The notes under the pieces were generated by a model. The model saw nothing but the letters and a program-made list of their open reading frames with translations. It made no database searches and had not been told where the DNA came from. The position numbers and the translations under genes were made by a program. A stretch of DNA of 64,000 nt, from the NCBI RefSeq assembly GCF_000802305.1, contig NZ_JTDK01000006.1:744001-808000 (forward strand), written 5' to 3'. Below are positions 24,748 to 42,303 of the stretch, piece after piece; the stretch's first letter is position 1; each line of letters opens with the position of its first letter. This stretch comes from Microbacterium mangrovi (GTDB taxonomy: Bacteria; Actinomycetota; Actinomycetes; Actinomycetales; Microbacteriaceae).

Positions 24748-24750
24748 CGA

Positions 24751-25095: not shown

Positions 25096-25211
25096 TCCGG
25101 CCTCCCTCCGGCCAGGCTGCATCCCGGCCAGGCTACATCGCTGTCGTGGCTGACGACACGTGCGTTGTCAACCCGGTCGATGTCGACGGCGGGGATTCCT
25201 AGTCTGTGGGG

Positions 25212-26760: not shown

Positions 26761-26763
26761 CCG

Positions 26764-27657
26764 TCAGGATGCCCGGACCTGAACGCGCCGGGTGAGCGCC
26801 GCGATGTCGGAGGGTCCGTACCCGCAGCATCCGCCGATGTACGTCGCGCCCGCGGCGATCCACGCGTCGACGAGGGCGACGTCGAACGGGTGCTCTTCGG
26901 ACCACGTCTTGCTGACCGGGTCCCAGACACCGCCCCGGTTCGGGTAGGCGATCCCCGGAAGCCCGGTCTGCCGCACCGCCGTCTCCACCGCGCCGAGCAC
27001 ATCCGTGTCGCGCGAGCAGTTGACCCCCGCCGCGACGAGGGCCGAGCAGCCGGCCAGCGCCGCGTAGGCCTCGCTGAGGGGCTGGCCCGCACAGGTCTCC
27101 TCCCCGCGGACGGAGTAGCTGAACCATGCGGGCAGCCCGATCTCGTCGAGGAGCTCGACGAGCACGACCGCCTCGTCGAGGTCGGGGATCGTCTCGACGG
27201 CGAACAGGTCGGGGCCGGCCGCGGCGAGGATGTCGAGACGAGGGCCGTGGAAGTCTCGCAGTCTCTTCGCCGAGACGCCGTACCGGCCGCGATACTCGGA
27301 GCCGTCACCGAGGACGGCCCCGTAGGGCCCCACCGACGCGGCGACGCGGAGGTCCGCGGGCGAGTCGGACGCGTCACGCGCTTCGCGAGCGACCGCGACT
27401 CCGCGCGCCACGAGTTCGCGCGCCGTGTCGGCGTCGAAGCCGGCTGCACGGAACCCTGCTTCGCTCGCCTGGTAGGTCGCGGTCGTGGCGACCTGGGCGC
27501 CGGCGGCGAAGTACGAACGATGGGCACGGACGATCTGCTCGGGCTCCTCGGCGAGAAGCCGTGCCGTCCACAGCGCGCCGTCCACCACGACGCCCTGCTG
27601 CTCCAGGGCGGTCGACAGGCCGCCGTCGAGGATCGTCACCCGTGCGGAAGTGCTCAT
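26764..27657 (-). CDS. mmuM: Homocysteine S-methyltransferase, MmuM type
   Basis: 297 aa zinc enzyme transferring a methyl group from S-methylmethionine or SAM to homocysteine. ILDGGLSTALEQQG at the start; zinc cysteines in GVNCS and YIGGCCGYG at the C-terminus; TYQASEAGF is the family's conserved loop. The frame stays open far upstream, but MSTSARV is the sensible start. It converges on the NnrD gene by three bases and is divergent from an IclR gene. With no S-methylmethionine permease beside it, the methyl donor is uncertain. Confidence 0.9.
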   Translation of the reverse strand: MSTSARVTILDGGLSTALEQQGVVVDGALWTARLLAEEPEQIVRAHRSYFAAGAQVATTATYQASEAGFRAAGFDADTARELVARGVAVAREARDASDSPADLRVAASVGPYGAVLGDGSEYRGRYGVSAKRLRDFHGPRLDILAAAGPDLFAVETIPDLDEAVVLVELLDEIGLPAWFSYSVRGEETCAGQPLSEAYAALAGCSALVAAGVNCSRDTDVLGAVETAVRQTGLPGIAYPNRGGVWDPVSKTWSEEHPFDVALVDAWIAAGATYIGGCCGYGPSDIAALTRRVQVRAS

Positions 27658-27747
27658 GAGTCCATCGTGGCATCCGTCCAGCGTGGTGCTCGCCGTGAGA
27701 CGGTGGTGCGCCGCCGAGCGTGCTCGGCGCTCGGGTACCCTCGTGGC

Positions 27748-28536
27748 ATGTCCCGATCCACCGAGGCTCCTCCCGCCCTGTCGAGCATGGGCCGCGGCCT
27801 CGAGGTGATCACGTGCCTGGCCGACCTGATGGCCGACCGGCACGGCGGCGCATCCGTGCAGGAGATCGCCCGCACGCTCGGGCGCGAGCGGTCGCAGGTC
27901 TCCCGGACGCTGTCCGCGCTGGCCGCACAGGATCTGGCCGAGAAGGACGCGGACGGGAAATACCGCCTCTCCTGGGGGTGGTACGCCACCGCCCAGGAAC
28001 TCGTCGACGGCCGGCTGCGCACGGTCGGCCTGTCGATCATGGATGCCCTCGCCGCCACGGTCGGAGAACCCTGCTTCCTGGGTGTCCTCGCCGGCGACAG
28101 CACGGTCACGGTCGTCGAGAGCATCCCTTCCGGGTCGGGCATGATCGGCTCCTGGATCGGGCGCGCCTACCCCGCCTTCTGCAGCGACGCCGGACAAGCC
28201 GTGCTCTGGGATGCGTCGGACGACGAGGTCCGTGCCGTCTTCGCGCAGACGGAGTTCCGCAGCCAGGGGCCGAACGCCCCGCGGTCGGTGGACGACTTCC
28301 TCGCCCGGCTGCAGAGGAGCCGCGCGCGGGGATACGCGATCGTGGACCAGGAGGCCGAACCCGACCTGTACTCGGTGTCGGCTCCGGTCTGGGACTTCCG
28401 CGCCGAGGTCGTGGCCGCGGTCCAGATCGTCGGCGAGCGGGCGTCGCTCGAACCGCGGACCGCCGCGCTCGCGCAGGTGTGCGTCGCCGCGGCCGCCGAG
28501 CTCTCGATCGCGCTCGGCGCCCCGGCGGGCTCCTAG
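27748..28536 (+). CDS. IclR-family transcriptional regulator
   Basis: 262 aa. N-terminal winged helix (SSMGRGLEVITCLADLM; SVQEIARTLGRERSQVSRTL recognition helix) and C-terminal GAF-like IclR effector domain (GEPCFLGVLAGDSTVTVVES, FCSDAGQAVLWD, SVSAPVWDFRAEVVAAVQIV). Divergent from the MmuM gene across 90 bp and tail-to-tail, overlapping by four bases, with a second IclR gene. It may regulate MmuM or the amino-acid operon nearby. Effector unknown. Confidence 0.85.
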   Translation: MSRSTEAPPALSSMGRGLEVITCLADLMADRHGGASVQEIARTLGRERSQVSRTLSALAAQDLAEKDADGKYRLSWGWYATAQELVDGRLRTVGLSIMDALAATVGEPCFLGVLAGDSTVTVVESIPSGSGMIGSWIGRAYPAFCSDAGQAVLWDASDDEVRAVFAQTEFRSQGPNAPRSVDDFLARLQRSRARGYAIVDQEAEPDLYSVSAPVWDFRAEVVAAVQIVGERASLEPRTAALAQVCVAAAAELSIALGAPAGS

Positions 28537-29288
28537 TCCGCGCGGGACGCCAGGGCGACGAGCCGCGACTGCACGTCCGCGAGGGCGCTCTGCGCCTCCC
28601 GCGAGCGGCGGGCGCTCAACTGCCGGCCCGCGACGGCGATCGAGGCGACGACGCAGGCGCCGTCGTGGATCGGCAGCGCGTACTCGAAGACGCCTTCCGC
28701 GTACTCCTCCTCGGCGATCACGATTCCCCGCGCCCGGTCGCGTACCAGGAGCGCCTCGACGCCGGCGGTGGACCGCGCGGCCCCGGGGCCGCCCACGCCG
28801 ACGAACTGGACGCCGCCGAGAAGGTCTTCCAGTTCGGCCGAGGAGAACTCCCACAGGAGCGCGCGGCCGGCGCCGGTGCACCAGATCGGGGTGGTCATTC
28901 CGGGATGCAGGTAGGAGGCGAGCAGGTCGCCCGGCGTCTCGGAGCGCAGCAGGAGCGCACCGGCGCCGCTGGCCGCCGCGATCTGCGCCGACATGCCCAG
29001 TCCGGTCGCGAGCCGGCGAAGTTCGCTGCGCGCCGCGCGCAGCCACGGCTGGTTGAGCACGCCGGCGGTCCGGAAGTACGCGTCGCCCGTGTTGAAGACG
29101 GCCGCGGGATCCCGCTCCAGGAATCCGAGTTCGCGCAGCTCGTGGGTCAGGCGGGAGACGCGGCTGCGCTCGATGCCGGTGGCCTCGGAGAGCCGCGAGG
29201 CGTTGTGGGCCAGGCGGCGCGAGCGCTCGCGCTGCACGACGGCATCGATCAGCGTCAGGCCCTGCAGGAAGGAGGACGGTTGGCTCAT
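28533..29288 (-). CDS. IclR-family transcriptional regulator, in operon with racemase and permease
   Basis: 251 aa IclR protein: SEATGIERSRVSRLTHELRE recognition region, WLRAARSELRRLA linker, C-terminal effector domain (GMTTPIWCTGAGRALLW; ALPIHDGACVVASIAVAG). The start overlaps the stop of the racemase gene by ATGA, so it is the last gene of permease-racemase-IclR and probably autoregulates that operon, perhaps through the CACAA/TTGTG site between permease and homoserine dehydrogenase. The ligand may be an amino acid or derivative. Confidence 0.85.
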   Translation of the reverse strand: MSQPSSFLQGLTLIDAVVQRERSRRLAHNASRLSEATGIERSRVSRLTHELRELGFLERDPAAVFNTGDAYFRTAGVLNQPWLRAARSELRRLATGLGMSAQIAAASGAGALLLRSETPGDLLASYLHPGMTTPIWCTGAGRALLWEFSSAELEDLLGGVQFVGVGGPGAARSTAGVEALLVRDRARGIVIAEEEYAEGVFEYALPIHDGACVVASIAVAGRQLSARRSREAQSALADVQSRLVALASRAD

Positions 29289-30466
29289 CGGGTCGTCACG
29301 ATCTCATCGGCGGTCTCGGCGTTCGCTCTCGGGCGATGCGCCGTGCCCTCGGCCACGACGCGGCGGCTCAGCCGCCCCCACGCTGTATAGAGGTTAGCGG
29401 CGATCTGCCCGCTCGCCCGTTCCAGATCGAGAGACGAGATCGTCGCGTCGCCCTGGCGTCCGTAGAGCACCACGTCGTCTCCGATGCGAGCCTCCGGCAC
29501 CTGCGTCACGTCCACGACGAGGGTGTTCATCGCCAGCCGGTCGACGACCGGGGCCGGCGTGCCGTGGATCAGCACGTGCGCGCGGCCGCCGAGCGCCCGG
29601 CTGTAGCCGTCCGCGTAGCCGAGGGGCACGACCGCAAGCCGAGACGGATGCCGCAGCCGATGCGTGCGGTCGTACCCGACCGTGCTGCCGGCCGGGTAGT
29701 CGTTGACGGCGGCGATCCGGGAGACGACGCGCATGGCGGGCCGGAGGTCGACGCCCGACGCCGACGTGTCGCCGTAGAGCGCGGCACCGATGCGGACGAG
29801 GTCGAACCGGGAGGCGGGGACGGTGAGCGCGGCGAAGGACGTCGCGCAGTGGCGTTCGACTCCCGGCGACCGCCTCCCGCCGAGGATCGCGGCGGCACGC
29901 CGGGACTCCTCCGCGAACGTCCGGGCACCGTCTGCGACGTCATCGGCATCCTCGCAGGGAAAGTGCGAGCACACGCCGGTCGGCCGGAGGTGCGGGTCGG
30001 CGGCGATCCGCTCCAGTTCGGACCGGGCGGCGTCGGAGGTGGTCCCGTGGATGCCGTCGCGACTGAGCCCGGTGGAGTTCAGCGAGACGTGGATGCGGAT
30101 CCTGCCGCCGACGGCGCGCGCGGCCGCCGCGACGACCTCGGCGTGGCGTCCGCCGCCGACCCACTCCTCGATGTCGTGGCGGGCGCCGTCCTCGATCTCC
30201 TCGCGGAGTGCGGTGCGCAGCCGGAGGATGCGGCCGCGGAATCCGCCCGCACGGGCCGCAGCCGCCTCGTCGTTCGACGTCACCCCGATCGCGGTGACGC
30301 CGAACGACAGCAGGACGGGCAGAACGAGGTCGAGGCCATGGCCGTATGCGTCCGCTTTCACCACAGCGCACAGCGGCAGGTGCGGCCCGAGCTCGTCCCG
30401 CACCGCCCCGAGGTTGTGGGCGATCGCGGCGGTGTCGATCTCTATGCAGGTCGGCGTCGCGGTCAT
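29285..30466 (-). CDS. Alanine-racemase-fold PLP amino-acid racemase
   Basis: 393 aa fold-type III racemase. K37 in AVVKADAYGHG is the PLP lysine; the second catalytic Tyr is in STVGYDRTH; LGYADGYSRAL is conserved. In true alanine racemases a late motif reads CMD...VDV; here it is AMNTLVVDV, with Ala for Cys and Asn for Asp, suggesting altered or broader substrate range. It lies between an amino-acid permease (31 bp upstream) and an IclR gene, not in cell-wall company, so racemising an imported D-amino acid for catabolism is a better guess than peptidoglycan supply. Confidence 0.8.
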   Translation of the reverse strand: MTATPTCIEIDTAAIAHNLGAVRDELGPHLPLCAVVKADAYGHGLDLVLPVLLSFGVTAIGVTSNDEAAAARAGGFRGRILRLRTALREEIEDGARHDIEEWVGGGRHAEVVAAAARAVGGRIRIHVSLNSTGLSRDGIHGTTSDAARSELERIAADPHLRPTGVCSHFPCEDADDVADGARTFAEESRRAAAILGGRRSPGVERHCATSFAALTVPASRFDLVRIGAALYGDTSASGVDLRPAMRVVSRIAAVNDYPAGSTVGYDRTHRLRHPSRLAVVPLGYADGYSRALGGRAHVLIHGTPAPVVDRLAMNTLVVDVTQVPEARIGDDVVLYGRQGDATISSLDLERASGQIAANLYTAWGRLSRRVVAEGTAHRPRANAETADEIVTTR

Positions 30467-30497
30467 CGTCGGTCCTCGGCTCCTCGTCCGGCCTCTG

Positions 30498-32030
30498 TCA
30501 GCGCAGGCCTGCGCCGGGCCCGGTCGCGGGTTCTTCCGCGACGGGGTCGTCCGCCACGTCGACGGGCGCCTCCTCGGACACGGTCGCCGCGGCCTTCGCG
30601 CCACGTCGTCCGTAGCGCCACCAGAAGAACAGGTAGCACAGGCCGACGAACGGGATGCCGAAGTACAGCGCCGCGATCTGGGTCGGGTCGAACGCGATCG
30701 CGACCACCGAGACCAGCAGCAGCAGGAACGTCACGATCGGCAGGACGGGATACAGCGGGGTACGGTACGGCAGCGACGCGAGGTCGCCTCCCTCCCGCAG
30801 GAACTTCCGCCGGTGGAAGAACTGCGACGCCACGATCGACATCCACACCGCCACCACCGCGAATCCGGCGATCGACACGAGCACCAGGTAGACGGTCTGG
30901 GGCGCGATGACGCTCGAGATGAGCGACACGAGCCCGAGCACGATGCTCACGCACAGGGCGACCAGCGGAATGCCGCGGCGGGTCAGCTTGGTCAGGGGCT
31001 TGGGCGCGTGGCCTTCCTCGGCGAGCGAGAACAGCATCCGCGCGCACGAGTAGAGACCGCTGTTGCCGGCCGAGAGGAGCGCCGTGATGATGACGAAGTT
31101 CATGATGTCCGCCGCGTACGGGATGCCGACGTAGTGGAAGACGTCGACGAACGGGCTGCTGGTGACGCTCGCCTTGTCGTAGGGCAGGATGGCGGCGATC
31201 ACGGTGATGGAGCCCACGAACAGGATCAGCAGACGCCACACCGTCGAGCGCAGAGCACGCGGGATGTTCTTTCCGGGGTCCTTCGTCTCGCCGGCGGCGA
31301 CGCCGATGAGCTCCGACCCGCTGAACGCGTAGAAGACGGCCAGGGTCGTGACGACGACGCCGCCGACGCCGTGCGGGAACAGCCCGTTCGGGGTCATGAA
31401 GTTGCTCAGCAGCACGGCGGGCGGGTGCTCGGTCGACAGCGGGGTGATGCCGAAGATCGCGGCGCCGCCGAGCACGATCAGGGCGACGATCGCGACGACC
31501 TTGATGAGGGAGAACCAGAACTCCAGCTCACCGAAGACGCGGGCGGAGATCGCGTTGATGGTGAACAGGCCCGCGGCGAAGATGAGGCACCACACCCACA
31601 CGTCGACGTGCGGGAACCAGCGCTGCATCAGGATGCCGGCGGCGGTGAACTCCGAGCCGAGGGCGACGACCCAGCACAGCCAGTACAGCCACGCGGTGGT
31701 GAACCCGGTCGCGGGCCCGATCGACCGCGCGGCGTAGATGTGGAAGGCGCCGGAGACCGGGTACGCGATCGCCAGCTCGCCCAGGCACGCCATCACCAGA
31801 TAGACGACGAGCGCTCCGACGAGGTAGGCGATGATCGCGCCGAGCGGGCCCGCCTGGCTGATCGTGTAGCCGGAGCTGAGGAACAGCCCGGATCCGATCA
31901 CGCCGCCGAGGGCGATCATGACCAGGTGCCGCGCGTCCATGGAACGCTGCAACCGGCGCAGGGGCACCTGGGTGGCGGTGGTGTGAGGCAGAGCGTTGGG
32001 CAGCTCTGCCTCTTGGAATGTCTGGCTCAT
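30498..32030 (-). CDS. Amino-acid permease, APC superfamily (AAT type)
   Basis: 510 aa with about twelve membrane helices. [20 protein letters not shown] is the hallmark of helix 1; [20 protein letters not shown] the helix 6 region; [11 protein letters not shown] a cytoplasmic loop. Long acidic, Pro/Ala-rich C-terminal tail. Pattern close to GabP/AnsP/ProY-type transporters. First gene of the operon with racemase and IclR, divergent from the homoserine dehydrogenase operon. The natural inference is that it imports the amino acid those genes degrade. An upstream ATG (adding 15 residues) is a possible alternative start. Confidence 0.85.
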
Positions 32031-32078
32031 GGGAAGAGTCACCAATCGGGTCACGGGTGGAATGGCGTGCTTGATCAT

Positions 32079-32090
32079 CACAACATTGTG
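32079..32090. promoter_or_regulatory. Candidate operator between the divergent permease and homoserine-dehydrogenase operons
   Basis: CACAACATTGTG has 5-bp arms CACAA/TTGTG around CA (10 of 12 symmetric), in the 279-bp divergent region, nearer to the permease. The IclR protein of the permease operon is the prime candidate ligand. The rest of the region shows no other clear symmetry. Confidence 0.4.
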
Positions 32091-32309
32091 TGAATACTGC
32101 ACGGGGGATATTTCCGGGAGATTACCCGGCGGCCGACCCCCGCGCAAGGGTTCGACGCGACGAACACGGCGTCCGAACGGAATCGGGCGAACGGGCGGCG
32201 GCGCGGTCGAATCGACATGCTCCCCGGCCGTTCTGACAGGCGCGGGCCGACACGGCGGTTCCGGAGACTGGATCGGTCCCTCCCCCCCGACTTTACAAAG
32301 GAGTCCGAC

Positions 32310-33365
32310 GTGAACCGTCATGACATCGCGCTGATCGGCTTCGGCGGCGTGAACCGAGCGCTCGCCCAGATCATCCACGAGCGGGCGGACGAGCTCACCG
32401 ATCAGCTCGGCTTCGCGCTGCGCGTCGTGGCCATCACGGACCTGCGTCTCGGCTCCCTCATGCAGGCCGACGGGATCGATCTCGGCGAGGTGTTCGCGAT
32501 GTCGCCGATGGACACGTTCGCCGGACGGCCGGGCGGGGCGGCCGTCCCGCAGAACGACTTCGTCATCCGCAACACGACGGCGGACATCGTCGTCGAGGCC
32601 ACGTTCACGAACCCGCTCGACGGCGAGCCGGCCGTCTCCCACGTCCGCGCGGCGATCGAGAGCGGCAAGAGCGTCGCCACCACCAACAAGGGACCGGTCG
32701 CGCTGGCGGGCACCGAGCTGAACCGCCTCGCCGCCGCGCACGGCGTCACCTTCGAGTACGAGGGGTCGGTCGTCAGCGGCACGCCGATCCTGCGATTCGC
32801 CGGCGAGACGCTCAAGGGCCTGCGGGTGAACGGCGTCCAGGGCATCCTGAACGGGACGAGCAACTACGTCCTCGGCCAGATGGAGAGCGGGATGACGCTC
32901 GACGACGCCGTCGCCGAGGCCCAGGCGCTCGGCTACGCCGAAGCCGACCCCACCGCGGACATCGAGGGGTCCGACGTCCAGCTGAAGATCGTGATCCTCG
33001 CCAACGAGATCCTCGGCGCGCAGATCACCACCGCGGACGTCGAGCGCCGCGGAATCTCCGAGGTCAGCGCGGCCGACATCATCGACGCGGCCGCCCGCGG
33101 GAGCCGCTGGAAGCTGATCGGCTCGGCATCCCGGGATGCCGACGGGAACGTCGTCGCCACCGTCGAGCCGGTGGCCCTTCCCTCGACCCATCCGCTGGCA
33201 AGCGTCAGCGGCCCGACCAACGCCGTCTCGTTCGACACCGATCTGCTCGGCACGGTCACCGTCTCCGGCCCCGGCGCCGGGCGCATGGAGACCGCCTACG
33301 CCCTGCTGTCCGACATCATCGCGATCGACGCGCACCAGCGCAGCATGATCGGAGCATCCGAATGA
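32310..33365 (+). CDS. Homoserine dehydrogenase lacking the ACT domain
   Basis: 351 aa. Interconverts homoserine and aspartate 4-semialdehyde with NAD(P). Rossmann motif [10 protein letters not shown]127 in [29 protein letters not shown]211, D222 and K226 align, with a constant +3 offset, to what I recall as the catalytic E208, D219 and K223 of yeast enzyme. The usual bacterial C-terminal ACT domain for threonine inhibition is absent. GTG start after AAAGGAG (8 bases). Coupled to aldehyde dehydrogenase and aspartase genes with no thrC or thrB nearby, so it probably works in the oxidative direction. Confidence 0.9.
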
Positions 33366-34777
33366 GCGACACCGTCCTGGCCGTCGAACCCGCCGCGGCC
33401 GGCCGGCCGTCCTTGATCGTGACCGACCCCTACACCGGGGCGACGATCGGCATGGTCGCGGAGAACGACCCGGCCGAGCTCGACGCCCTGCTCGACCGCG
33501 CCCGCACCGGGTACGCACTCTCCCGGTCGCTGTCGCGCTTCGCGCGCCACGAGATCCTGGCCCGCGCGGCCACGCTCCTGCGGGAGCGGGAAGACGAGGC
33601 GGCGGACCTCATCGTGCGAGAGGCCGGCAAGACGATCCGGCAGGCGCGCAAGGAGGTGCGGCGCGCGACCATGACCCTGTCACTGTCCGCCGACGCCGCC
33701 CGCTCCGACGCCGGCGAGGTCATCCCGTTCGACGCGTTCGAGGGATCCGAGAGCCGCCGCGGCTGGTTCACCCGCGAGCCCCTGGGGATCATCGTCGCGA
33801 TCACCCCGTACAACGACGCGCTGAACCTGGTCGCCCACAAGATCGGCCCCGCGATCGCCGGCGGCAACGCGGTGATCCTGAAGCCGTCGCAGCTCACTCC
33901 CCTGACCGCGCGGTTCCTCGTCGGTCTGCTGATCGACGCCGGCCTGCCGGACGAGATCGTCACCGTCGTGCACGGCGACCGGCACCTCGCGCAGGCGCTC
34001 GTGAGCGCGCGGGATGTCCGGATGGTGTCGTTCACGGGCGGCTTCGCCACCGGCGAGGCGATCGCCCGCAATGCGGGTCTCAAGAAGCTCGCGATGGAGC
34101 TGGGCGGCAACGCGCCGGTGATCGTGTTCGCCGACGCCGATGTGGATGCCGCCGTCGAGGCCTGCGTCTCGGGCGCCTTCTGGGCCGCCGGGCAGAACTG
34201 CGTCGGCGCGCAGCGCATCCTGGTGGAGCGCGAGATCTACGCGCGGTTCCGGGAGCGCTTCGTCGCGCAGACGGTCGCGCTGCGCGCGGGCGACCCTTCG
34301 GACGAGGCCACCGATGTGGGGCCGATGATCACCCCGGCCTCCGCCGAGCGCGCGGAGCGGGTCGTCGCGGATGCCGTCGCCGCCGGCGCGCGCGTCCTGG
34401 CCGGGCACCGACGCGAGGGATCCGTCTACTGGCCGACCGTCGTCGAGGGCGTTCCGTTCTCGTGCGAGCTCTGGGCCGACGAGGCCTTCGCCCCCGTCGT
34501 CGTGCTGTCGCCCTTCGACACCGAGGAGCAGGCGATCCTGCAGGCCAACGAGATCGACTACGCGCTGCACGCCGCGACGTTCACCGGCGACCTCGGGCGC
34601 GCGCTGCGCGTGTCGGAGCAGCTGGAGGCGGGCGGCGTCATGATCAACGACTCGTCGGACTACCGCGTCGACAGCATGCCGTTCGGCGGCGCGAAGTACG
34701 GGAGCATGGGCCGCGAAGGGGTGCGGTTCGCCTACGAGGAGATGACCCAGCCCAAGGTCATCTGCATCAACGCATGA
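33362..34777 (+). CDS. NAD(P)-dependent aldehyde dehydrogenase (probable aspartate-semialdehyde oxidiser)
   Basis: 471 aa. Catalytic C280 in AGQNCVG, general base E246 in MELGGN, oxyanion Asn in TPYND (residue 151); the cofactor loop has the FTGG motif. Sequence style is that of small-substrate aldehyde dehydrogenases such as lactaldehyde or phosphonoacetaldehyde dehydrogenase. ATGA overlaps on both sides bind it to homoserine dehydrogenase and aspartase, whose shared intermediate would be aspartate 4-semialdehyde; oxidation of that compound gives aspartate. Substrate is inferred from context alone. Succinate semialdehyde or another short aldehyde is possible. Confidence 0.85.
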
Positions 34778-36159
34778 CCGCCGCCTCCTTCCGCGTCGAG
34801 CGGGACTCCCTCGGCGAGCTCCGCGTTCCCGCGGACGCCTACTGGGGCATCCACACCGCCCGGGCGCAGGAGAACTTCCCGATCAGCGACACGCCGATCG
34901 GGCGGCATCCCGCTCTGGTGGAGGCGCTCGCCACGGTGAAGCAGGCGGCCGCGGCGGCGAACCTCGAGCTGGGGCTGCTGCCGGCGGCCACGGCCGACGC
35001 GATCGCGCACGCGTGCGAGCGGGTGCGGCGCGGCGAGCTGCACGATCAGTTCGTCGTGGACGTCATCCAGGGCGGCGCCGGCACGAGTTCGAACATGAAC
35101 GCCAACGAGGTCGTCGCCAACGCGGCCCTCGAGCGCCTCGGTCTCTCCCGCGGGCGGTACGACGTCGTTCATCCGATCGACGACGTCAACCGCAGCCAGG
35201 CCACCAACGACGTCTATCCCACCGCGATCAGGATCGCCGTCACCCGCGGCATCCAGGGGCTCCGGGCCGAGCTCGCCGGACTCGCCGGGGCGTTCGCGGA
35301 CCGCGGGATGGCCTTCGGTGCCATCGGCAAGGTGGGGCGCACGCAGCTGCAGGATGCCGTGCCCATGCGGCTCGGGGACGAGTTCACCGCCTTCGCCGTC
35401 GCGATCCGCGAAGACGTGCAGCGCCTCGAGGAGGTCGTGCCGCTGCTGCTCGAATGCAGCCTCGGCGGCACCGCGATCGGCACCGGCGTCACCGCTCCCC
35501 AGGGCTACCGGGAGCGGGTCCTCAACCACCTCGGTGAACTCTCCGGGCTGCCGATCACCGCTGCCGCGCACCTGTTCGAGGCGAGCTGGGACACGAGCGC
35601 GTTCTTGACGGCATCCAGCCTGCTGCGGCGGTGCGCGGTGAAGCTGTCGAAGATCAGCAGCGATCTGCGCCTGCTCGCAAGCGGACCGCAGACCGGTCTC
35701 GGGGAGATCCGCCTGCCGCCGAGGCAGGCCGGGTCGTCGATCATGCCGGGAAAGGTGAACCCGGTCATCCCCGAGACCATCAACCAGATCGCGTTCGCCG
35801 TCATGGGCGCGGACGTGACCGTCGGCATCGCCGGCGAGGCCGGACAGCTGCAGCTGAACGCCTTCGAGCCGGTCATCGCGCACTCGCTGCTGCAGTCGGT
35901 CGCGTGGCTGACCAACGGGGCGCGGATCCTGCGCGTGCTGTGCGTCGACGGCATCCTCGCCAATGAGGAGGTCCTGGCCGCGAATGCGGCGAACGCGGTC
36001 GGGGCGGTGACGGCACTGGTCCCCGTGATCGGCTACGAGGCCGCCGCGCGTGCGGCCACGCAGGCACTGCGCACCGGTGAGCCGATCGCGGATGCCGTGG
36101 CGGCGCACGCGGACCTCTCCGGTGCGGACGTCGGCCGGCTCCTGGCCGGGGCCGGCTGA
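34774..36159 (+). CDS. aspA: Aspartate ammonia-lyase
   Basis: 461 aa fumarase/aspartase superfamily. Signature loop [11 protein letters not shown] is intact. [20 protein letters not shown] and [13 protein letters not shown] have the aspartase rather than fumarase form (TSxNMNANE; NDVYPTA), though the usual HPNDHVN is HPIDDVN here. Converts aspartate to fumarate and ammonia. It is the last of three ATGA-coupled genes after homoserine dehydrogenase and aldehyde dehydrogenase, completing a path from homoserine into the TCA cycle. Ends nine bases before the convergent Lrp gene. Confidence 0.88.
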
Positions 36160-36168
36160 CCCGCCCGG

Positions 36169-36612
36169 TCAGCTCCGGTCGATCGCGCGCGTGAGGGAGA
36201 CCGCGGTGACCGTGTTCGCAACCCCCGGGATCGCGGCGACCTGTTCCCAGATCTGTCCGATGCGATCCATCGAGTCGGCCTGCAGCGTGACGAACAGGTC
36301 GTACTCGCCGGAGAGCACGTCGCATCGCACGACCTCGGGGATGCGCCGCAGTTCGGCCACGACGCGGTCGTCGCGCATCCGGTCAGCGCGGTAGATCATC
36401 ACGATCGCCGTCACCTGGCGGGCGGCCGACGAACCGCGCACGACCGTGTAGCCGGCGATGACGCCGTCGCGCTCCATCCGCTCGATGCGCTGCCGGACAG
36501 CGTTCCGGGAGAGGTGGACCTGGAGCGCGACGGACGCCAGAGGGGTCCTCGCGTTCGCGGTCAGCATCTCCACGATCCGGAGATCGATCTCGTCGAGGTG
36601 CGAGTTCGCCAT
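36169..36612 (-). CDS. Lrp/AsnC-family transcriptional regulator
   Basis: 147 aa. Helix-turn-helix (LDEIDLRIVEMLTANARTPL; VHLSRNAVRQRIERMERDGV) and the RAM/Lrp C-terminal sensor domain (AIVMIYRADR; VVRCDVLSGEYDLFVTLQ). Divergent from the transsulfuration-family lyase across 93 bp with a perfect palindrome at 36634-36647, so it most likely senses an amino acid and controls that lyase, and perhaps the adjacent catabolic operon. Confidence 0.88.
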   Translation of the reverse strand: MANSHLDEIDLRIVEMLTANARTPLASVALQVHLSRNAVRQRIERMERDGVIAGYTVVRGSSAARQVTAIVMIYRADRMRDDRVVAELRRIPEVVRCDVLSGEYDLFVTLQADSMDRIGQIWEQVAAIPGVANTVTAVSLTRAIDRS

Positions 36613-36633
36613 TCAGTCCTCCGTGCATTATCA

Positions 36634-36647
36634 GCAATTGCAATTGC
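36634..36647. promoter_or_regulatory. Perfect 14-bp palindrome, probable Lrp operator
   Basis: GCAATTGCAATTGC is its own reverse complement. It sits 22 bp from the Lrp start and 59 bp from the lyase start, in the only AT-rich part of the divergent gap. Lrp/AsnC sites are commonly AT-centred palindromes. Confidence 0.65.
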
Positions 36648-36705
36648 CAATCCCACACGCTACCGTAACCAGCATCCACCGCTCACCCTCGTCTCAAGGA
36701 TTCCG

Positions 36706-37905
36706 ATGTCCGAACGTCCCGACCGGAAACGCGCCGGCACCCTGTCCGACCTCAGCCTCGCCGTGCACGGGGGAAACCTCCTCGACTCGACGAAGGCGCT
36801 GCGCACGCCGCTGGTGATGGCGAACTCCTACGCCCTGCCGGACGACCCGAGCGAGATCAGCTGGTCGGCGACGGCGCCCGGCCTCTACACCCGCAACACC
36901 GGCGTCAACCAGCAGGCGCTGCAGGAGAAGCTCGCCGCTCTCGACGGCGGCGAGGACGCGGTCGCCCTGGCCTCCGGCGTCGCCGCGCTGCACGCCGTGT
37001 TCTTCACGCACGTCCGGGTCGGTGACCACGTCGTGGTCAGCGACGTGACCTACGAGGCGACGTGGCGCCTGTGGACCGAGCTGCTCCCCGGCCGCTACGG
37101 GATCGAGGCGACGTTCGTGGACGTGGGCGATCTCGACGCGGTGCGCGCCGCCATGCGCCCGAACACGCGGCTCGTCTGCATCGAGGCGATCGCGAATCCG
37201 ACGACGAAGGTCGCCGACGTCGCCGCGATCGCGGCGATCACCCACGAGGCCGGAGCGATCCTCATGGTCGACTCCACCTTCACTCCCCCGCCGCTGTACC
37301 GCCCGCTGCGCGACGGCGCCGACCTCGTCGTCCACTCGCTGACGAAGTACATCAACGGACACGGCGATGCGATGGGCGGCGCCGTGATCGGCTCCCGCGA
37401 GCTGATCGAGCCGATCAAGGCAGACGCCATGGTGGATGTCGGGGGAATCATCTCGCCGTTCAACGCCTGGCAGATCCACCGGGGATCGGTCACGCTGCCG
37501 CTGCGTCTCCGCCAGCACACCGCCTCGGCCCAGGCGGTCGCCGAGCGCCTCGCCGCAGACCCGCGCGTCGCGTACGTCTTCTACCCCGGGCTGCCGTCCC
37601 ATCCCGACCACGAGCTCGCCAGGCGTCAGTTCGGCGACCGGGGATTCGGCGGGATGCTCGCGTTCGCGGTGGACGGCGATCCCGATGTCCAGAACCGCTT
37701 CGTCGCCAACCTCCGCCTGATCACCTCGGGGTTCTCCCTCGGACACGACGACTCGCTCATCGTGCACACCGGAACCGAGGGCGGTCGCGTCGCGACGTAC
37801 CCGGATCCCTTCCGGCGCCTCGGTCATCTCCGGCTGTCCGTCGGCCTCGAAGAGACGTCCGATCTGCTCGCGGACCTCGACGCGGCGCTCGACGCCACCT
37901 TCTGA
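36706..37905 (+). CDS. Cystathionine gamma-lyase / methionine gamma-lyase-like PLP enzyme
   Basis: 399 aa Cys/Met-metabolism family. YTRNTGVNQQALQEKLAALD, Schiff-base K214 in HSLTKYINGH, VDSTFTPPPLYRP, and C-terminal GHDDSLIVHTGTEGG, LRLSVGLEE. The usual family SLYG(G)T segment reads SDVTYEAT, with Tyr116 in the expected place. gamma-Elimination of homoserine derivatives, methionine or cystathionine is likely. AAGGA precedes the ATG by 6. Divergent from Lrp. Next to the homoserine operon, it may feed 2-oxobutanoate or thiol from related amino acids. Exact substrate open. Confidence 0.85.
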   Translation: MSERPDRKRAGTLSDLSLAVHGGNLLDSTKALRTPLVMANSYALPDDPSEISWSATAPGLYTRNTGVNQQALQEKLAALDGGEDAVALASGVAALHAVFFTHVRVGDHVVVSDVTYEATWRLWTELLPGRYGIEATFVDVGDLDAVRAAMRPNTRLVCIEAIANPTTKVADVAAIAAITHEAGAILMVDSTFTPPPLYRPLRDGADLVVHSLTKYINGHGDAMGGAVIGSRELIEPIKADAMVDVGGIISPFNAWQIHRGSVTLPLRLRQHTASAQAVAERLAADPRVAYVFYPGLPSHPDHELARRQFGDRGFGGMLAFAVDGDPDVQNRFVANLRLITSGFSLGHDDSLIVHTGTEGGRVATYPDPFRRLGHLRLSVGLEETSDLLADLDAALDATF

Positions 37906-37921
37906 AACGCCGCTTCCGACC

Positions 37922-38250
37922 TCACGGCCCCTCGATGCGGTCGAGCGGGTCCTCGGCGGGCTCGGGGACGACGTGGAGCCCTTCGGGCGAGTTGGCCGTG
38001 ACCCCCCCGAGGGCTTCGAGCCAGTTGCGATTGAGGGTCGGGCGCCGGCTGCCGTAGTACTTGTAGGTCAGCGACGAGTGCGCGTGGATCCACACGCTCG
38101 TGCGCCCGTCGCCAGGCTGGGGTCGTCCCGCCACGTGAACACGAACGGCTCGTCGCGGCGCAGCTTGTTGGTGATCACCTGCTGCAGGTGCAGGAGCAGT
38201 CGGTCTTCGAACTCCACCCTGATGTCGTGCTCGTAGGTCAGCCGTCCCAT
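37922..38250 (-). pseudogene. DUF7882-type gene broken by a single-base frameshift
   Basis: Third copy of the 23.5-24.1 kb gene type. From the ATG at 38250 it reads MGRLTYEHDIRVEFEDRLLL, HLQQVITNKLRRDEPFVFTW, then RDDPSLATG and loses the family. The -strand frame one base over resumes with GDGRTSVWIHAHSSLTYKYYG and a C-terminal HVVPEP. Restoring one G at about 38112 gives a continuous RDDPSLGDGRTSVWIH. This is either a real inactivating deletion or a sequencing error in a short G run. GGAGGCTCCC precedes the ATG. The lyase gene converges on it. Confidence 0.8.
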
Positions 38251-38413
38251 GGGAGGCTCCACAGGTGCTTCCGCGCTTCCCCGTCGGCAGCGGGTGACGG
38301 AGGCATTGGCCCGGCTGCGGACGACCTACTCTTCTGGGCGGTTCCGCCTTCCAGCATCCTCGCCCTATCCGAAAAGCGCAAGATGGTCGCCCGTCGCGCA
38401 ACCGTTCCGTGAG

Positions 38414-38447
38414 CGAGAAGAGACCCGGATCACCAGGTCTCTTCTCG
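38414..38447 (-). terminator. Hairpin terminator of the APC permease gene
   Basis: Perfect 12-bp arms CGAGAAGAGACC / GGTCTCTTCTCG around a 10-base loop, 15 bp after the permease stop on the minus strand. The plus side also carries a short TTCTCGT tail, so it may act in both directions. Confidence 0.8.
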
Positions 38448-38461
38448 TTCTCGTGAGGACG

Positions 38462-39952
38462 TCAGTCCGAGACTGCACCCGGCATTGCGGGCTCAGCGGA
38501 GTTCGACGGGTTTGCGGTCTCGAATTCGGCGGGCAGCTCGAGCGGGCGTCGCGAGTAGTACGTCTTCGCCCGACGGGAGAAGATCGCGAGGGGGATGAAG
38601 CCGAGCGCGATCAGCCCGACACCGACGATGTTGACGACCGGCGCGTTGTTGGGGATCGAGGCGACGAACACCCAACCGAGGAAGACGGCTCCGAGCGCGG
38701 GCCACAGGCCGATGAGGAGGAAGTTCTTGAGCGACTTGGTGAGTACGCGCCGGTACGCCACCACCACCGCGACGCCCGCGAGCGTGTAGTAGAAGGCGAC
38801 GAGGAGGCCGGTGGACGAGATCGCGTTCGTCATGATGTCCGCGACGCTGCCGAGGAAGTTCGACCCGACGAACAGCACCAGCGACACGCCCGCGACGACC
38901 ACGGTGGCGAAGGCCGGCGTCTTCCATCGCGGATGCACCCGCCCGAGTGCGCGCGGCATGGTGTTGTCGCGCCCCATGGCGAACAGCGTCCGGGTGACCT
39001 GGACGAGGGCCGTCTCCAGGGTGGCGATCGTGGACAGCGCGAAGGCGAGCAGCAGGAGCTTGCCACCGATGCCGGGCCAGATGATCTCGCCGAGCGCGCT
39101 GAGCACATTGGCGCTGTTGGCTTCGATCGACTTGGTCGACATCAACGTCAGGACCGCGACGGTGTAGATCTCGAACAGCACGAAGACGATGGCCACGCCG
39201 ATCAGCCCCGCCCGGCCCGCGGACTTGTGGCCGTCGACCGCCTCCTCGTTGAGGTTCGAGCTGACATCCCACCCCCAGAAGTAGAAGGCGGCGACCAGGG
39301 CTGCGGCCACGAATACGCCGGGTCCTGCGAGATGCGACAACCCGAACCAGCTCCACGAGAATGTCAGCCCGGCGTGGGCAGTGGTCGCGGCGCGAACCAG
39401 CGCGAGCACTCCGAAGAGGAGCAGGATGCCGACCTCGGTGATCCCCATGATCCATTGGGCGCGGGCGGTGATGTGCACGCCGAAGTAGACCAGGCAGGCC
39501 ATCACGACGAACCAGACGGCGCCCACGGTCGTGACCAGCGCCACGTTGTCCACCTGGTCCGGTGCGAACAGCGACACCGTCATGGACCCCGCCGGCAGGG
39601 CCGCGGCGAGCATGAACAGGATCATCGAGATGACCATCGCCCACCCCGACAGGAACCCGAGGACGGGGTGCAGGGCTCGCGCGACCCACGAGTAGGTGGC
39701 ACCGGCGTTGACGTCTGCGCGGCCCAGGTAGAGGAAGGCCCACGCGATGCCCAGCATGGGGATCGCGCACCAGAGCAGGGCTGCGGGTGCGCCGACGCCC
39801 GCCACGGCGATGAGGGTCGCGGTCGTCGCCGCGATCGTGTAGGCGGGCGCGCTGCCGGCGACCGCCATGACGGCGACGCCTGCGGCGCTGATTCCACCGG
39901 CCTGGAGTTGGTGGGTGGGCTCCTGAAGTGATTCAGGCTCGGACGTGGACAT
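38462..39952 (-). CDS. APC-family amino acid/polyamine permease
   Basis: 496 aa with about twelve membrane helices. N-terminal AGGISAAGVAVMAVAGSAPAYT, GIAWAFLYLGRADVNAGATYSW and AFYFWGWDVSSNLNEEA are typical of the polyamine/amine branch of the APC superfamily. The C-terminal tail is soluble. It ends at a strong hairpin. An Lrp gene upstream on the same strand is separated by another hairpin, so the permease has its own promoter. With the aldehyde dehydrogenase and PuuB-like oxidase nearby, an amine such as putrescine or an aromatic amine is a likely substrate. Confidence 0.85.
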   Translation of the reverse strand: MSTSEPESLQEPTHQLQAGGISAAGVAVMAVAGSAPAYTIAATTATLIAVAGVGAPAALLWCAIPMLGIAWAFLYLGRADVNAGATYSWVARALHPVLGFLSGWAMVISMILFMLAAALPAGSMTVSLFAPDQVDNVALVTTVGAVWFVVMACLVYFGVHITARAQWIMGITEVGILLLFGVLALVRAATTAHAGLTFSWSWFGLSHLAGPGVFVAAALVAAFYFWGWDVSSNLNEEAVDGHKSAGRAGLIGVAIVFVLFEIYTVAVLTLMSTKSIEANSANVLSALGEIIWPGIGGKLLLLAFALSTIATLETALVQVTRTLFAMGRDNTMPRALGRVHPRWKTPAFATVVVAGVSLVLFVGSNFLGSVADIMTNAISSTGLLVAFYYTLAGVAVVVAYRRVLTKSLKNFLLIGLWPALGAVFLGWVFVASIPNNAPVVNIVGVGLIALGFIPLAIFSRRAKTYYSRRPLELPAEFETANPSNSAEPAMPGAVSD

Positions 39953-40045
39953 GGGAATACCTTTCGTGGGTGTCGCAGAGCGCGCCGGAGGGCGCGGCGA
40001 GGGATGCCTGCGCGGCGCCGGGCGGCGACGACGGGCGTTGCCGAA

Positions 40046-40074
40046 GGGACGCCTGCCGTCGAGGCAGGCGTCCC
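40046..40074 (-). terminator. Hairpin terminator of the Lrp gene
   Basis: Perfect 12-bp inverted repeat GGGACGCCTGCC / GGCAGGCGTCCC with loop GTCGA, 12 bp downstream of the Lrp stop codon on the minus strand. Confidence 0.85.
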
Positions 40075-40085
40075 CGAACGGGGTG

Positions 40086-40601
40086 TCAGTCGGCTGTCGG
40101 CGTCCCCGGTGCGGAGGAGTCCGCGGCGAGGCCTTCGATCGCGGGAACGCCCCAGCCGTACGCGAGCTTCGCGACTTCGAGCACGAAGAACGATTCGGTG
40201 GAGAGCACTCCGGGGACGGAGCCGATCTTGTTCTGCAGGACGTCGGTCATGTCGGCGATGTCGCGGGCGATCACCTCGACCAGCACGTCGAAGCGGCCGG
40301 AGGTCATGACGACGTAGCTCGACTCGTGCATCGCCGAGAGGGCGGCACACACGTCCCGCGCGGTTCCGGGGCTGGTGCGGACACCGACGATCGCGAGCAG
40401 ATCGAATCCGATCGCCAGCGGATTCGCGATGCCGACGACCTGCAGGATGCCCTCATCTTGCAGGCGCTTCGCCCGGTACCGGATCGACGAGGCAGGCACC
40501 CCGAGCTCCTCGCCCAGGTTGCTGAACGAACGCCGGCCGTCGATCTGCAGCGCGGCCACGATCTTCAGATCGAGGTCGTCGAGGCCGGGGGTCGCATCCA
40601 T
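40086..40601 (-). CDS. Lrp/AsnC-family transcriptional regulator
   Basis: 171 aa. LDDLDLKIVAALQIDGRRSF and LGVPASSIRYRAKRLQDEGI form the helix-turn-helix; VVGIANPLAIGFDLLAIVGV and YVVMTSGRFDVLVEVIARD the RAM domain. A C-terminal tail of about 20 residues is extra. ATG preferred; a GTG two codons upstream is the alternative. It sits between the aldehyde dehydrogenase gene (29 bp upstream) and its own terminator, so it is co-transcribed with that gene and probably regulates this amine-catabolism cluster. Confidence 0.85.
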   Translation of the reverse strand: MDATPGLDDLDLKIVAALQIDGRRSFSNLGEELGVPASSIRYRAKRLQDEGILQVVGIANPLAIGFDLLAIVGVRTSPGTARDVCAALSAMHESSYVVMTSGRFDVLVEVIARDIADMTDVLQNKIGSVPGVLSTESFFVLEVAKLAYGWGVPAIEGLAADSSAPGTPTAD

Positions 40602-40630
40602 CGTCACAGGCTATCGTCGTCCGCCGAGCC

Positions 40631-42088
40631 TCAATCGCCGATGTGGATGACGGACGTGCGCAGGTCGGTCATGTCGTGCAGCGTGTACATCCCGCCGATC
40701 CGCCCCCAACCGGTGCCCTTGCCGCCCGCGCCGCCGAACGGCATGTTGATGTCCCACCAGCCGTTCGACTCGTTGAGCAGCACCTGGCCGGTCTCGAGCT
40801 CCTCGAGGAAGCGGTAGCCCCGGGCGATGTCGCGCGTGAAGACCGCCGACTGCAGACCCAGAGAATCCGCGTTCGCGATCCGCAGCGCATCGTCGTCGTC
40901 CTGCGCCGTGATGATGGGCAGCACGGGCCCGAACGATTCCTCCCGCGAAAGCAGTGCGTCCTCGGTGACGCCGTCGACGATGGTGAAGTCGTAGTACAGG
41001 TCGGTGGCGAAGCCGGGCGCGCGTCCGCCGCCGAGCAGCACGTCGAAACCGTGGGCGCGAGCTTCCGCCAGGTGCCGGTCCATCTTGGCCGCGACGCCCT
41101 CGTTGTTCAGCGGACCGAGGTTGGTGGACTCCTCGAACGGGTTGCCGAGCTTGACGGTCCTGGCATACGCGAGGGCCGCGTCGACGAAGGAGTCGTGGGC
41201 GTCGCGGTGGACGATCACCCGCTCGGTGGCGCAGCACACCTGGCCGGCGCAGTAGAACGCGGAGTCGACAGCCGCCTTCGCCGCCCGCTGCATGTTGGCG
41301 TCGTCCAGGACGACGACGGGTCCGTTGCCGGAGCACTCCATGACGGACCGCTTGAGGCCTGCCGCGGCCTGGATCTTCGCGCCGGTCGCCGACGAGCCGA
41401 TGAAGCCGATCGCGTCGATCCCGCGGTGGGAGACGAGCTGGGAGCCGAACGCCCCCTCGCCCGGCAGGATGTTGACGAGTCCCTCGGGCAGGCCGGCTTC
41501 GGCAAGGTATTCCATCGCCTTCAGCACCGTGAGCGAGGTGTGGATCGGCGGCTTCACGACGAGCGCGTTGCCGGTCGCCAACCCCGGGGCGGCGAACTCC
41601 GTGAACATCAGGAGGGGGAAGTTCCACGGGGTGATGATCGCCCACGTGCCGACGGCCTGACGCCAGGTGTGCATCCGCTTCTTCGTGTCGGACGAGGGAA
41701 TCGTCTCACCGTAGAGGCGCAGGGCGTCCTCCGCGTGGAGGTGGAAAAGCTGCGCGGCCTCGGTGACGTCGGCGCGCGACTCGCTGATGGGCTTTCCCTG
41801 CTCGAGGGTCTGCAGCAGGGCGAGTTCCTCGACGTGCTCGGCGAGCTTGTCGCCGATGCGGTGGCAGAGCTCGGCGCGCTTCCACACACCGACCTTGCGC
41901 CACTCGCGTTGCGCACGGTTGGCCGCGGCGACGGCACGGTCGAGGTCGGTTCGTGAGGGCACCGGGAGCGCGGCGATGAATTCGCCTGTCGCGGGGCTGA
42001 TGACCTCGAAGCGTTCGCTTCCGGTGCCATCGGTGTAGGCCCCGTCGATGAACAGCTGTGGCGTGGCGGTGAGGGTCTGGGCATACAT
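40631..42088 (-). CDS. Aldehyde dehydrogenase family protein
   Basis: 485 aa. Catalytic Cys in AGQVCCATERV, base Glu in MECSGNGPVV (family usually MELGG), Asn in TPWNFPLL. In addition GSSATGAKIQ replaces the usual GSTxVG. It resembles gamma-glutamyl-gamma-aminobutyraldehyde or vanillin-type dehydrogenases. AGGAGA lies 8 bases before the ATG. Divergent from the PuuB-like oxidase; together they would oxidise an amine to its acid. Followed by Lrp in the same transcript. Also notable is the DINMPFGGAGGKGTGWG end motif. Confidence 0.85.
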   Translation of the reverse strand: MYAQTLTATPQLFIDGAYTDGTGSERFEVISPATGEFIAALPVPSRTDLDRAVAAANRAQREWRKVGVWKRAELCHRIGDKLAEHVEELALLQTLEQGKPISESRADVTEAAQLFHLHAEDALRLYGETIPSSDTKKRMHTWRQAVGTWAIITPWNFPLLMFTEFAAPGLATGNALVVKPPIHTSLTVLKAMEYLAEAGLPEGLVNILPGEGAFGSQLVSHRGIDAIGFIGSSATGAKIQAAAGLKRSVMECSGNGPVVVLDDANMQRAAKAAVDSAFYCAGQVCCATERVIVHRDAHDSFVDAALAYARTVKLGNPFEESTNLGPLNNEGVAAKMDRHLAEARAHGFDVLLGGGRAPGFATDLYYDFTIVDGVTEDALLSREESFGPVLPIITAQDDDDALRIANADSLGLQSAVFTRDIARGYRFLEELETGQVLLNESNGWWDINMPFGGAGGKGTGWGRIGGMYTLHDMTDLRTSVIHIGD

Positions 42089-42303
42089 GGCGCGTTCTCC
42101 TGTCGTCGTTGACGCATGTGTGATGCTCAGCAAACCTAGACACGAGGTTGTCGTCTGCGCAAGTCTTTGGTCACCTTTTTAACGACCTGTTTTCTTCTGC
42201 CTATTTTGGTTGCGGATTCGACATATTCCTCCCGCTATGGTTGTGGACGCATCGGCGCCGTGCGGGCGCCGGATGCATCGAACCGACGGAAGGATCGCGA
42301 GAC

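What the first reader, a model, noticed from the sequence alone, without database searches (positions are those of the whole stretch)
32310..36159. Three-gene operon that reads as a homoserine-to-fumarate catabolic pathway
Seen: homoserine dehydrogenase without its ACT domain, an aldehyde dehydrogenase and an aspartase joined by two ATGA overlaps, with no thrB, thrC, lysC or metX beside them. Known: HSD interconverts homoserine and aspartate 4-semialdehyde; aspartase makes fumarate and ammonia from aspartate. Inference: if the aldehyde dehydrogenase oxidises aspartate semialdehyde to aspartate, the three steps run backwards through the usual aspartate pathway and drain homoserine into the TCA cycle. 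Loss of the threonine-sensing ACT domain fits. I know of no described pathway with exactly this operon.
Basis: partly seen in the sequence, partly recalled or inferred. Interest (0 to 1): 0.85.

Follow-up and report, generated by a model that had tools for sequence, protein, structure and literature searches.

The report
Homoserine-burning operon, perhaps fed by S-methylmethionine
A Microbacterium carries a gene set that very probably burns the amino acid homoserine to fumarate, and its neighbours suggest that the homoserine is cut from a plant sulfur compound, S-methylmethionine, rather than from the legume toxin canavanine as in related bacteria.

Summary
In detail: an ACT-less homoserine dehydrogenase (HSD), an aldehyde dehydrogenase (ALDH) and an aspartase overlap by ATGA twice (32310-36159), and the genome has a separate lysA-hom-thrC-thrB. 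The catabolic reading is well supported, but the pathway is not new in kind: homologues of all three lie in rhizobial canavanine/homoserine degradation clusters. The triplet is the lower half of a larger locus, and aspartase is optional (8 of 24 loci).

Upstream is a divergent permease 55% identical to E. coli MmuP (S-methylmethionine importer). Downstream is a PLP enzyme 67% identical to the rhizobial canavanine-gamma-lyase candidate. Of 198 Microbacterium genomes, 20 have the HSD, all 20 with both neighbours close by. The window-type lyase forms its own clade with changed residues at the presumed substrate pocket. It goes with the MmuP-type permease in 27 of 27 genomes, whereas the canavanine accessories CtdA and SMR occur only beside the other type.

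Best reading: S-methylmethionine -> dimethyl sulfide + homoserine -> aspartate semialdehyde -> aspartate -> fumarate. The lower half is about 85% likely; S-methylmethionine as feed about 50%. Nothing has been assayed.

The parts
32310..33365 (+). Homoserine dehydrogenase, 351 aa, no ACT domain, NAD-type (inferred)
   Evidence: NCBIfam PRK06270 439 bits, cut-off 373; Pfam; Asp at end of strand 2 in all 37 rows aligned
33362..34777 (+). Aldehyde dehydrogenase, inferred to oxidise aspartate 4-semialdehyde to aspartate
   Evidence: Pfam Aldedh; no NCBIfam cut-off reached among the 25 of 45 families shown; 63% identical over 451 aa to the ALDH of the rhizobial operon
34774..36159 (+). Aspartase (aspartate ammonia-lyase), optional third gene
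   Evidence: present in 8 of 24 loci
36169..36612 (-). Lrp/AsnC-family regulator
   Evidence: Pfam; 24 of 24 loci
36706..37905 (+). PLP enzyme of the canavanine-gamma-lyase family, window type (Phe338, Asp344 in C. freundii methionine gamma-lyase numbering); inferred S-methylmethionine gamma-lyase
   Evidence: Pfam Cys_Met_Meta_PP; tree; columns; 24 of 24 loci
30498..32030 (-). MmuP-type amino acid permease; inferred S-methylmethionine importer
   Evidence: 55.4% identical to E. coli MmuP over 471 aa, next LysP 40.3%; 610.8 bits to the S-methylmethionine permease model, cut-off 716 not reached
29285..30466 (-). Alanine-racemase-family gene, role in the locus unknown
   Evidence: TIGR00492 214.9 bits, cut-off 168; 17 of 24 loci
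28533..29288 (-). IclR-family regulator
   Evidence: Pfam; 24 of 24 loci
26764..27657 (-). Homocysteine S-methyltransferase (MmuM-like)
   Evidence: PRK09485 325.5 bits, cut-off 215; 44% identical to E. coli MmuM; 11 of 24 loci

Best explanation
The three genes are the lower half of a catabolic locus for a plant compound. A MmuP-type permease imports S-methylmethionine. A PLP enzyme of the canavanine-gamma-lyase family with altered pocket residues removes the gamma-substituent and adds water, giving dimethyl sulfide and L-homoserine. HSD (with NAD+) oxidises homoserine to aspartate 4-semialdehyde, the ALDH oxidises that to aspartate, and aspartase releases fumarate and ammonium; where aspartase is missing, aspartate can be transaminated. 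MmuM may turn part of the S-methylmethionine into methionine. Shown: gene content, homology, conserved linkage, a separate biosynthetic HSD. Inferred: every substrate, the flow direction and the pocket role of the residues. The homoserine-to-fumarate half alone I put at about 0.85; the figure below is for the whole statement.
For: Lower half: separate lysA-hom-thrC-thrB; HSD, ALDH, aspartase, Lrp and PLP are 57, 63, 48, 49 and 67% identical to those of the rhizobial operon, which lies behind CtdA as the canavanine degradation operon does (PMC10018355, passages); Asp at the end of strand 2 of HSD in all 37 rows, not in the own biosynthetic HSD. Upstream half: permease 55.4% identical to MmuP and grouped with it (99/98, with a long-branch warning); all 20 HSD genomes of 198 Microbacterium have PLP within 1982-3402 bp and permease within 272-317 bp; window-type PLP with permease in 27 of 27 genomes, other-type PLP with permease in 0 of 9; 7 loci hold PLP and permease without HSD, 157-266 bp apart; Phe338 and Asp344 in 31 of 31 window-type, Val338 and Glu344 in 15 of 15 others; no CtdA or SMR match in 31 window-type loci; MmuM-like gene in 11 of 24 loci; 8 of 9 distinct HSD loci without PLP keep the MmuP-type permease beside another enzyme pair.
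Against: No assay. The permease model's cut-off is not reached. The window-type clade is one lineage, so its pairing with the permease may be one event. One other-type PLP (L093) also has Phe338, without the permease. 7 genomes have the permease without PLP or HSD, and no MmuM match in the flanks held. MmuM-like genes are absent from 13 of 24 loci; the E <= 1e-50 set is in 15 of 27 window-type genomes and 25 of 171 others. The permease also sits with HSD where there is no PLP, which would fit a homoserine importer. The ALDH's substrate rests on context.
Confidence: 0.45

Rival explanations
1. It is an actinobacterial canavanine-utilisation locus: the PLP enzyme is a canavanine-gamma-lyase giving hydroxyguanidine and homoserine, and HSD-ALDH-aspartase burn the homoserine, as proposed for Pseudomonas and rhizobia.
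For: PLP 67% identical to the enzyme of the rhizobial operon, inside the same family branch of the tree (100/97); same lower pathway. Actinobacterial loci with CtdA, SMR, HSD and PLP exist (L095).
Against: The window lyase is of the other residue type; no CtdA: the only B3/4 match of the genome is in a 1324-aa open frame on another contig, which I take for PheT; the only SMR match is about 160 kb away; no match to the rhizobial ABC transporter proteins in the window; the permease is MmuP-like, not nearest to LysP.
Confidence: 0.2
2. The locus takes up free homoserine (for example from plant exudate): the permease is a homoserine carrier drawn from the MmuP family, HSD-ALDH-aspartase degrade it, and the PLP enzyme is a side branch, such as a homoserine gamma-lyase giving 2-oxobutyrate.
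For: The permease stays with HSD-ALDH in 8 of 9 loci without PLP; pRL8 carries a homoserine cluster without this PLP.
Against: In 7 loci the permease sits with PLP and without HSD; a free-homoserine system needs neither the PLP nor the c24/cyclase pair; nearest characterised permease is MmuP.
Confidence: 0.22
3. The ALDH acts on another aldehyde and the three genes do not form one linear pathway.
For: The ALDH reaches no curated cut-off among the NCBIfam families shown; the best scores are lactaldehyde, sulfoacetaldehyde and phosphonoacetaldehyde dehydrogenases.
Against: HSD-ALDH pair kept in 24 of 24 loci here, in 9 of 9 other actinobacterial loci and in the rhizobial operons.
Confidence: 0.06

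Closest known systems
Canavanine utilisation operon of Pseudomonas canavaninivorans and Rhizobium leguminosarum (Hauth 2022, not held, recalled; PMC10018355, passages)
   Same: PLP gamma-lyase family, HSD, ALDH, aspartase and Lrp
   Different: No CtdA, SMR exporter or ABC transporter in the locus; MmuP-type permease instead; lyase of another residue type; gene order differs
Homoserine catabolism cluster of R. leguminosarum pRL8 (Vanderlinde 2014, known through PMC10228743)
   Same: HSD, ALDH, aspartase match and Lrp
   Different: pRL8 has a homoserine kinase and ABC transporter and no such PLP enzyme in the 25 kb held
Oxidation-directed HSD of Arthrobacter nicotinovorans (Liang 2022, known through PMC10228743)
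   Same: Probably the same HSD subfamily: PMC10228743 places a Rhizobium HSD there, and Arthrobacter bambusae has a 65% identical HSD in a similar locus (L028)
   Different: Its sequence was not held, so membership was not tested
E. coli mmuPM (S-methylmethionine permease and methyltransferase)
   Same: Permease 55% and methyltransferase 44% identical
   Different: In the window the two genes are 2.8 kb apart with two genes between, and a homoserine branch is attached

Membership tests
Canavanine utilisation operon | PLP enzyme of the canavanine-gamma-lyase family | tested here: met
   67% identity over 399 aa; same branch, 100/97; that the rhizobial protein is the lyase is inferred from its place
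Canavanine utilisation operon | HSD, ALDH and aspartase in the locus | tested here: met
Canavanine utilisation operon | CtdA (B3/4 protein) beside the operon | tested here: not met
   one B3/4 match in the genome, in a 1324-aa frame elsewhere; no match in the window
Canavanine utilisation operon | Residues of the rhizobial type at 338 and 344 | tested here: not met
   Phe and Asp instead of Val and Glu
Canavanine utilisation operon | Turnover of canavanine | not testable with these tools
   needs an assay
mmuP-type S-methylmethionine permease | Nearest to MmuP among nine E. coli permeases of the family | tested here: met
   55.4% v. 40.3% for LysP; tree 99/98 with a long-branch warning
mmuP-type S-methylmethionine permease | NCBIfam PRK11387 cut-off of 716 bits | tested here: not met
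   610.8 bits
MmuM | NCBIfam PRK09485 cut-off of 215 bits | tested here: met
   325.5 bits
pRL8-type homoserine catabolism cluster | HSD and ALDH side by side | tested here: met
pRL8-type homoserine catabolism cluster | Kinase/phosphotransferase gene and amino acid ABC transporter | tested here: not met
   no match of the phosphotransferase or ABC proteins of L029 in the window
Biosynthetic hom | C-terminal extension with ACT domain and thrC/thrB neighbours | tested here: not met
   351 aa, no ACT hit; hom-thrC-thrB is elsewhere, L071
Oxidation-directed HSD (Arthrobacter nicotinovorans) | Oxidises homoserine only | not testable with these tools
   reference sequence not held; activity needs an assay

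The most novel reading that the evidence does not exclude
A complete, undescribed route from the plant metabolite S-methylmethionine to fumarate: MmuP-type import; a PLP S-methylmethionine gamma-lyase that arose within the canavanine-gamma-lyase family by a few pocket changes and releases dimethyl sulfide; then HSD, ALDH and aspartase. In Arthrobacter-like and Streptomyces relatives the lyase is replaced by an unrelated pair, a small CutA1/PII-like protein (c24) and a PF04199 hydrolase, which may cut S-methylmethionine to homoserine lactone and open the lactone. That would give genes to the old S-methylmethionine hydrolase activity and a land-based source of dimethyl sulfide.
Probability: 0.42. 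Interest if true: 0.8.

Novelty: new variant of a known kind. Interest (0 to 1): 0.6.

Why it matters
The homoserine-to-fumarate branch is known in kind. If the upstream step is right, the locus names a gene for hydrolytic cleavage of S-methylmethionine, shows how a canavanine-type system was refitted for another plant amino acid, and points to plant-associated actinobacteria as makers of dimethyl sulfide. It also makes sharp predictions that simple assays can settle: the pocket residues 338 and 344, and the swap of the lyase for the c24/cyclase pair.

Tried and rejected
Canavanine as the substrate was my first conclusion after the rhizobial plasmid hits. I lowered it when the window-type lyases split off with other residues and other neighbours and when no standalone CtdA was found in the genome. 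No riboswitch: 0 Rfam matches at gathering thresholds in 24000-44000. The promoter and terminator scan of 31950-38000 found 0 and 0; three short inverted repeats upstream of HSD are unremarkable. The AlphaFold model of c24 (2 sequences) is poor (mean pLDDT 58.9); Foldseek listed CutA1 and PII proteins among the top matches but none under E 0.001, and a profile search gave NIF3 and CutA at E 0.1 and 1.1: a lead only. A phylum survey (296 genomes each) gave, besides the window genome, one genome with the PLP and one with the HSD, too few to use. The Fisher p-values printed are not used as evidence, because the genomes share descent. Ten literature searches listed no paper whose title or shown abstract start joins S-methylmethionine with HSD-ALDH-aspartase or with this lyase; the library is open-access only, so this is weak evidence of novelty. 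Recalled, from no call: the abstract of Hauth 2022 (HSD, aspartate-semialdehyde-dehydrogenase and aspartase activities induced on canavanine), Mazelis 1965 on bacterial S-methylmethionine cleavage, the human cystathionine gamma-lyase residue 339 work, the likeness of phage SAM lyases to PII/CutA1 folds, and that Asp at the end of strand 2 favours NAD+.
Full report
Observation. The three genes are as described. HSD starts at a GTG at 32310 behind aaaggag, is 351 aa long and matches HSD domains without any ACT hit. ALDH begins at 33362 and aspartase at 34774, each overlapping the gene before by four bases, ATGA. The genome (4.42 Mb, 55 contigs, 99.91% complete) has one more HSD by family search. 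It lies in the order lysA, hom (433 aa), thrC, thrB on the same contig (L071; the gene names are my reading of the translations). The host is taken as Microbacterium because 20 of the 26 named HSD relatives bear that name, the closest among them.

The locus is larger. On the minus strand, 0.28 kb upstream of HSD, is a permease (30498-32030), then an alanine-racemase-family gene, an IclR regulator and, further on, a homocysteine S-methyltransferase. Downstream are a divergent Lrp/AsnC gene and then a Cys/Met-metabolism PLP enzyme. Mapped on 24 loci (window, L003-L024, L027), permease, IclR, HSD, ALDH, Lrp and PLP are in 24 of 24, racemase in 17, methyltransferase in 11 and aspartase in 8. The PLP protein of the other 23 is 81-89% identical to the window's.

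Known relatives. A plasmid search with HSD gave 128 records; 60 were listed, mostly rhizobia. With the PLP enzyme, the 15 records at 60-80% identity are 13 rhizobial or agrobacterial, one Streptomyces and one Paraburkholderia. In R. leguminosarum pRLN3, M. amorphae pM0123d and a S. alkalisoli plasmid the order is B3/4 protein, ABC transporter, PLP, one or two varying genes, HSD, ALDH, dapA-like, aspartase, phosphotransferase/kinase, Lrp (in S. alkalisoli an IS110 gene lies between HSD and ALDH). PMC10018355 (passages) says that the B3/4 protein CtdA lies directly upstream of the canavanine degradation operon in P. canavaninivorans and R. leguminosarum, and that canavanine-gamma-lyase yields homoserine and hydroxyguanidine. 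I infer that the PLP gene of these plasmid operons is that lyase; a second Cys/Met-type PLP gene near two of the three operons is on the other strand and only 38% identical to the window enzyme. The pRL8 plasmid of strain 3841 has HSD, ALDH, an aspartase match, a kinase and Lrp, without this PLP; PMC10228743 (passages) cites a homoserine catabolism cluster in R. leguminosarum and an HSD family with one-way oxidation. The homoserine branch is therefore established in kind. Hauth 2022 itself was not held.

Distribution. In 198 Microbacterium genomes HSD (E <= 1e-100) is in 20, PLP (E <= 1e-120) in 36 and the permease (E <= 1e-170) in 34. All 20 HSD genomes have both others on the same contig: HSD-PLP gaps 1982-3402 bp, HSD-permease gaps 272-317 bp. 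Of the 16 PLP genomes without HSD, 7 have the permease 157-266 bp from PLP and 9 lack it. Another 7 genomes have the permease without PLP; their held flanks showed, of the query proteins, only ABC ATPases.

Two kinds of lyase. A tree of 49 PLP proteins places 44 in one family apart from methionine gamma-lyase (100/97). Within it 31 window-type proteins form a branch (100/98), while the three rhizobial proteins group with L043 and L045 of Microbacterium (96/98). Columns that separate the 31 from 15 other members include 338 (Phe 31 of 31; Val 15 of 15), 344 (Asp 31; Glu 15), 337 (Gly 29, Ser 1, Ala 1; Ala 15) and 350 (Thr 30, Val 1; no Thr in 15), in C. freundii methionine gamma-lyase numbering. 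Sixteen more members from an order-wide survey (18 of 248 genomes) have Val338 in 15 and Phe338 in one (L093), and Glu344 in 16; none of the 16 held stretches shows the permease. Residue 338 precedes the conserved Ser339; that its human counterpart governs specificity is recalled. CtdA matches occur in 5 and SMR matches in 6 of the 30 other-type loci, and in none of the 31 window-type loci, within the flanks held. L095 is an actinobacterial locus with CtdA, two SMR matches, HSD, ALDH and a Val338 PLP. L081, a Streptomyces plasmid, has HSD, ALDH, aspartase, two SMR matches and two Val338 PLP genes. So the canavanine-like type exists in actinobacteria and differs from the window type.

The permease. 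Against nine E. coli permeases of its family it is 55.4% identical to MmuP over 471 aa, next LysP at 40.3%. The tree groups it and its actinobacterial relatives with MmuP (99/98), with a printed warning about long E. coli branches. It scores 610.8 bits to the S-methylmethionine permease model, 237 above the next family, yet below the cut-off of 716. PMC3228920 (passages) describes mmuP and mmuM and calls S-methylmethionine a common plant product. The window methyltransferase passes its family cut-off. Close copies (E <= 1e-90) are in 6 of 27 genomes with window-type PLP, five of them beside the locus, and in 2 of 171 others; at E <= 1e-50 it is 15 of 27 and 25 of 171.

A second solution. Eight of nine have the MmuP-type permease, IclR, a PF04199 gene and a small gene c24; aspartase is in 6 and MmuM in 2. 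L025 has none of permease, IclR, PF04199 gene or c24. c24 has no significant Pfam match in the two proteins tested. In 149 genomes of the Micrococcaceae-like family of G008, c24 is in 6, all six with permease, HSD and PF04199 gene in the held stretch. I read this as one cleavage enzyme replaced by another for the same imported compound. S-methylmethionine would fit both: substitution by water gives homoserine, internal substitution by the carboxylate gives homoserine lactone, which a hydrolase opens. This is inference.

Mechanism and confidence. HSD keeps the Asn-Lys and Asp-x3-Lys motifs, and an Asp at the end of strand 2 in all 37 rows aligned, where the own biosynthetic HSD reads Ala-Val-Arg-Asn; this fits NAD+ and oxidation. 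The ALDH is assigned by context. I give about 0.85 to homoserine -> aspartate semialdehyde -> aspartate -> fumarate and about 0.5 to S-methylmethionine as feed. That S-methylmethionine is enzymatically hydrolysed to dimethyl sulfide and homoserine is stated for animal tissue (PMC13209565, passage), and the breakdown is mentioned for wine (PMC10835709, passage).

Limits. Pairings come from related genomes and are not independent. Neighbour counts are limited to the flanks held (up to about 10 kb a side, much less in some). No enzyme of this locus has been assayed, and the Pseudomonas enzyme could not be compared.

Noticed in passing
L028:3027-3530, L026:2970-3434, L032:23841-24311, L042:13562-14245: Small protein c24 (about 155-230 aa as read) without a significant Pfam match in the two tested, beside HSD, MmuP-type permease and a PF04199 gene; weak CutA1/PII/NIF3-like signal. 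Possible S-methylmethionine-cleaving enzyme.
   Followed up: partly
L095 (G712:C115:18500-36500): An actinobacterial locus with Lrp, ALDH, HSD, CtdA (B3/4), Val338 PLP, two SMR matches and a DapA-like gene: looks like a full canavanine locus outside Proteobacteria.
   Followed up: partly
L081 (NZ_CP109486.1 214000-250000): Streptomyces plasmid with HSD-ALDH-aspartase, two SMR matches and two separate Lrp-HAD-PLP units about 11 kb apart.
   Followed up: partly
L045 (G317:C1:3588000-3606000): A Microbacterium with a Val338 PLP (partial match), CtdA and two SMR matches but no HSD in the held stretch: the canavanine-like type in the same genus as the window.
   Followed up: partly
window 29285-30466 (-): Alanine-racemase-family gene kept in 17 of 24 related loci; its role in a homoserine or S-methylmethionine pathway is unclear.
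   Followed up: no
window 38462-39952 (-) and 40631-42133 (-): A second APC-type permease and another aldehyde dehydrogenase follow the PLP gene; the permease matched only the window among the 24 loci.
   Followed up: no
window 18769-20127 (+): A second Cys/Met-type PLP gene, 33% identical to the rhizobial PLP, grouping outside the family.
   Followed up: no
L031:14682-15558 (pRL8): An aspartase match (86% to pRLN3) lies where the gene table lists no gene, between ALDH and kinase; unlisted or broken gene.
   Followed up: no
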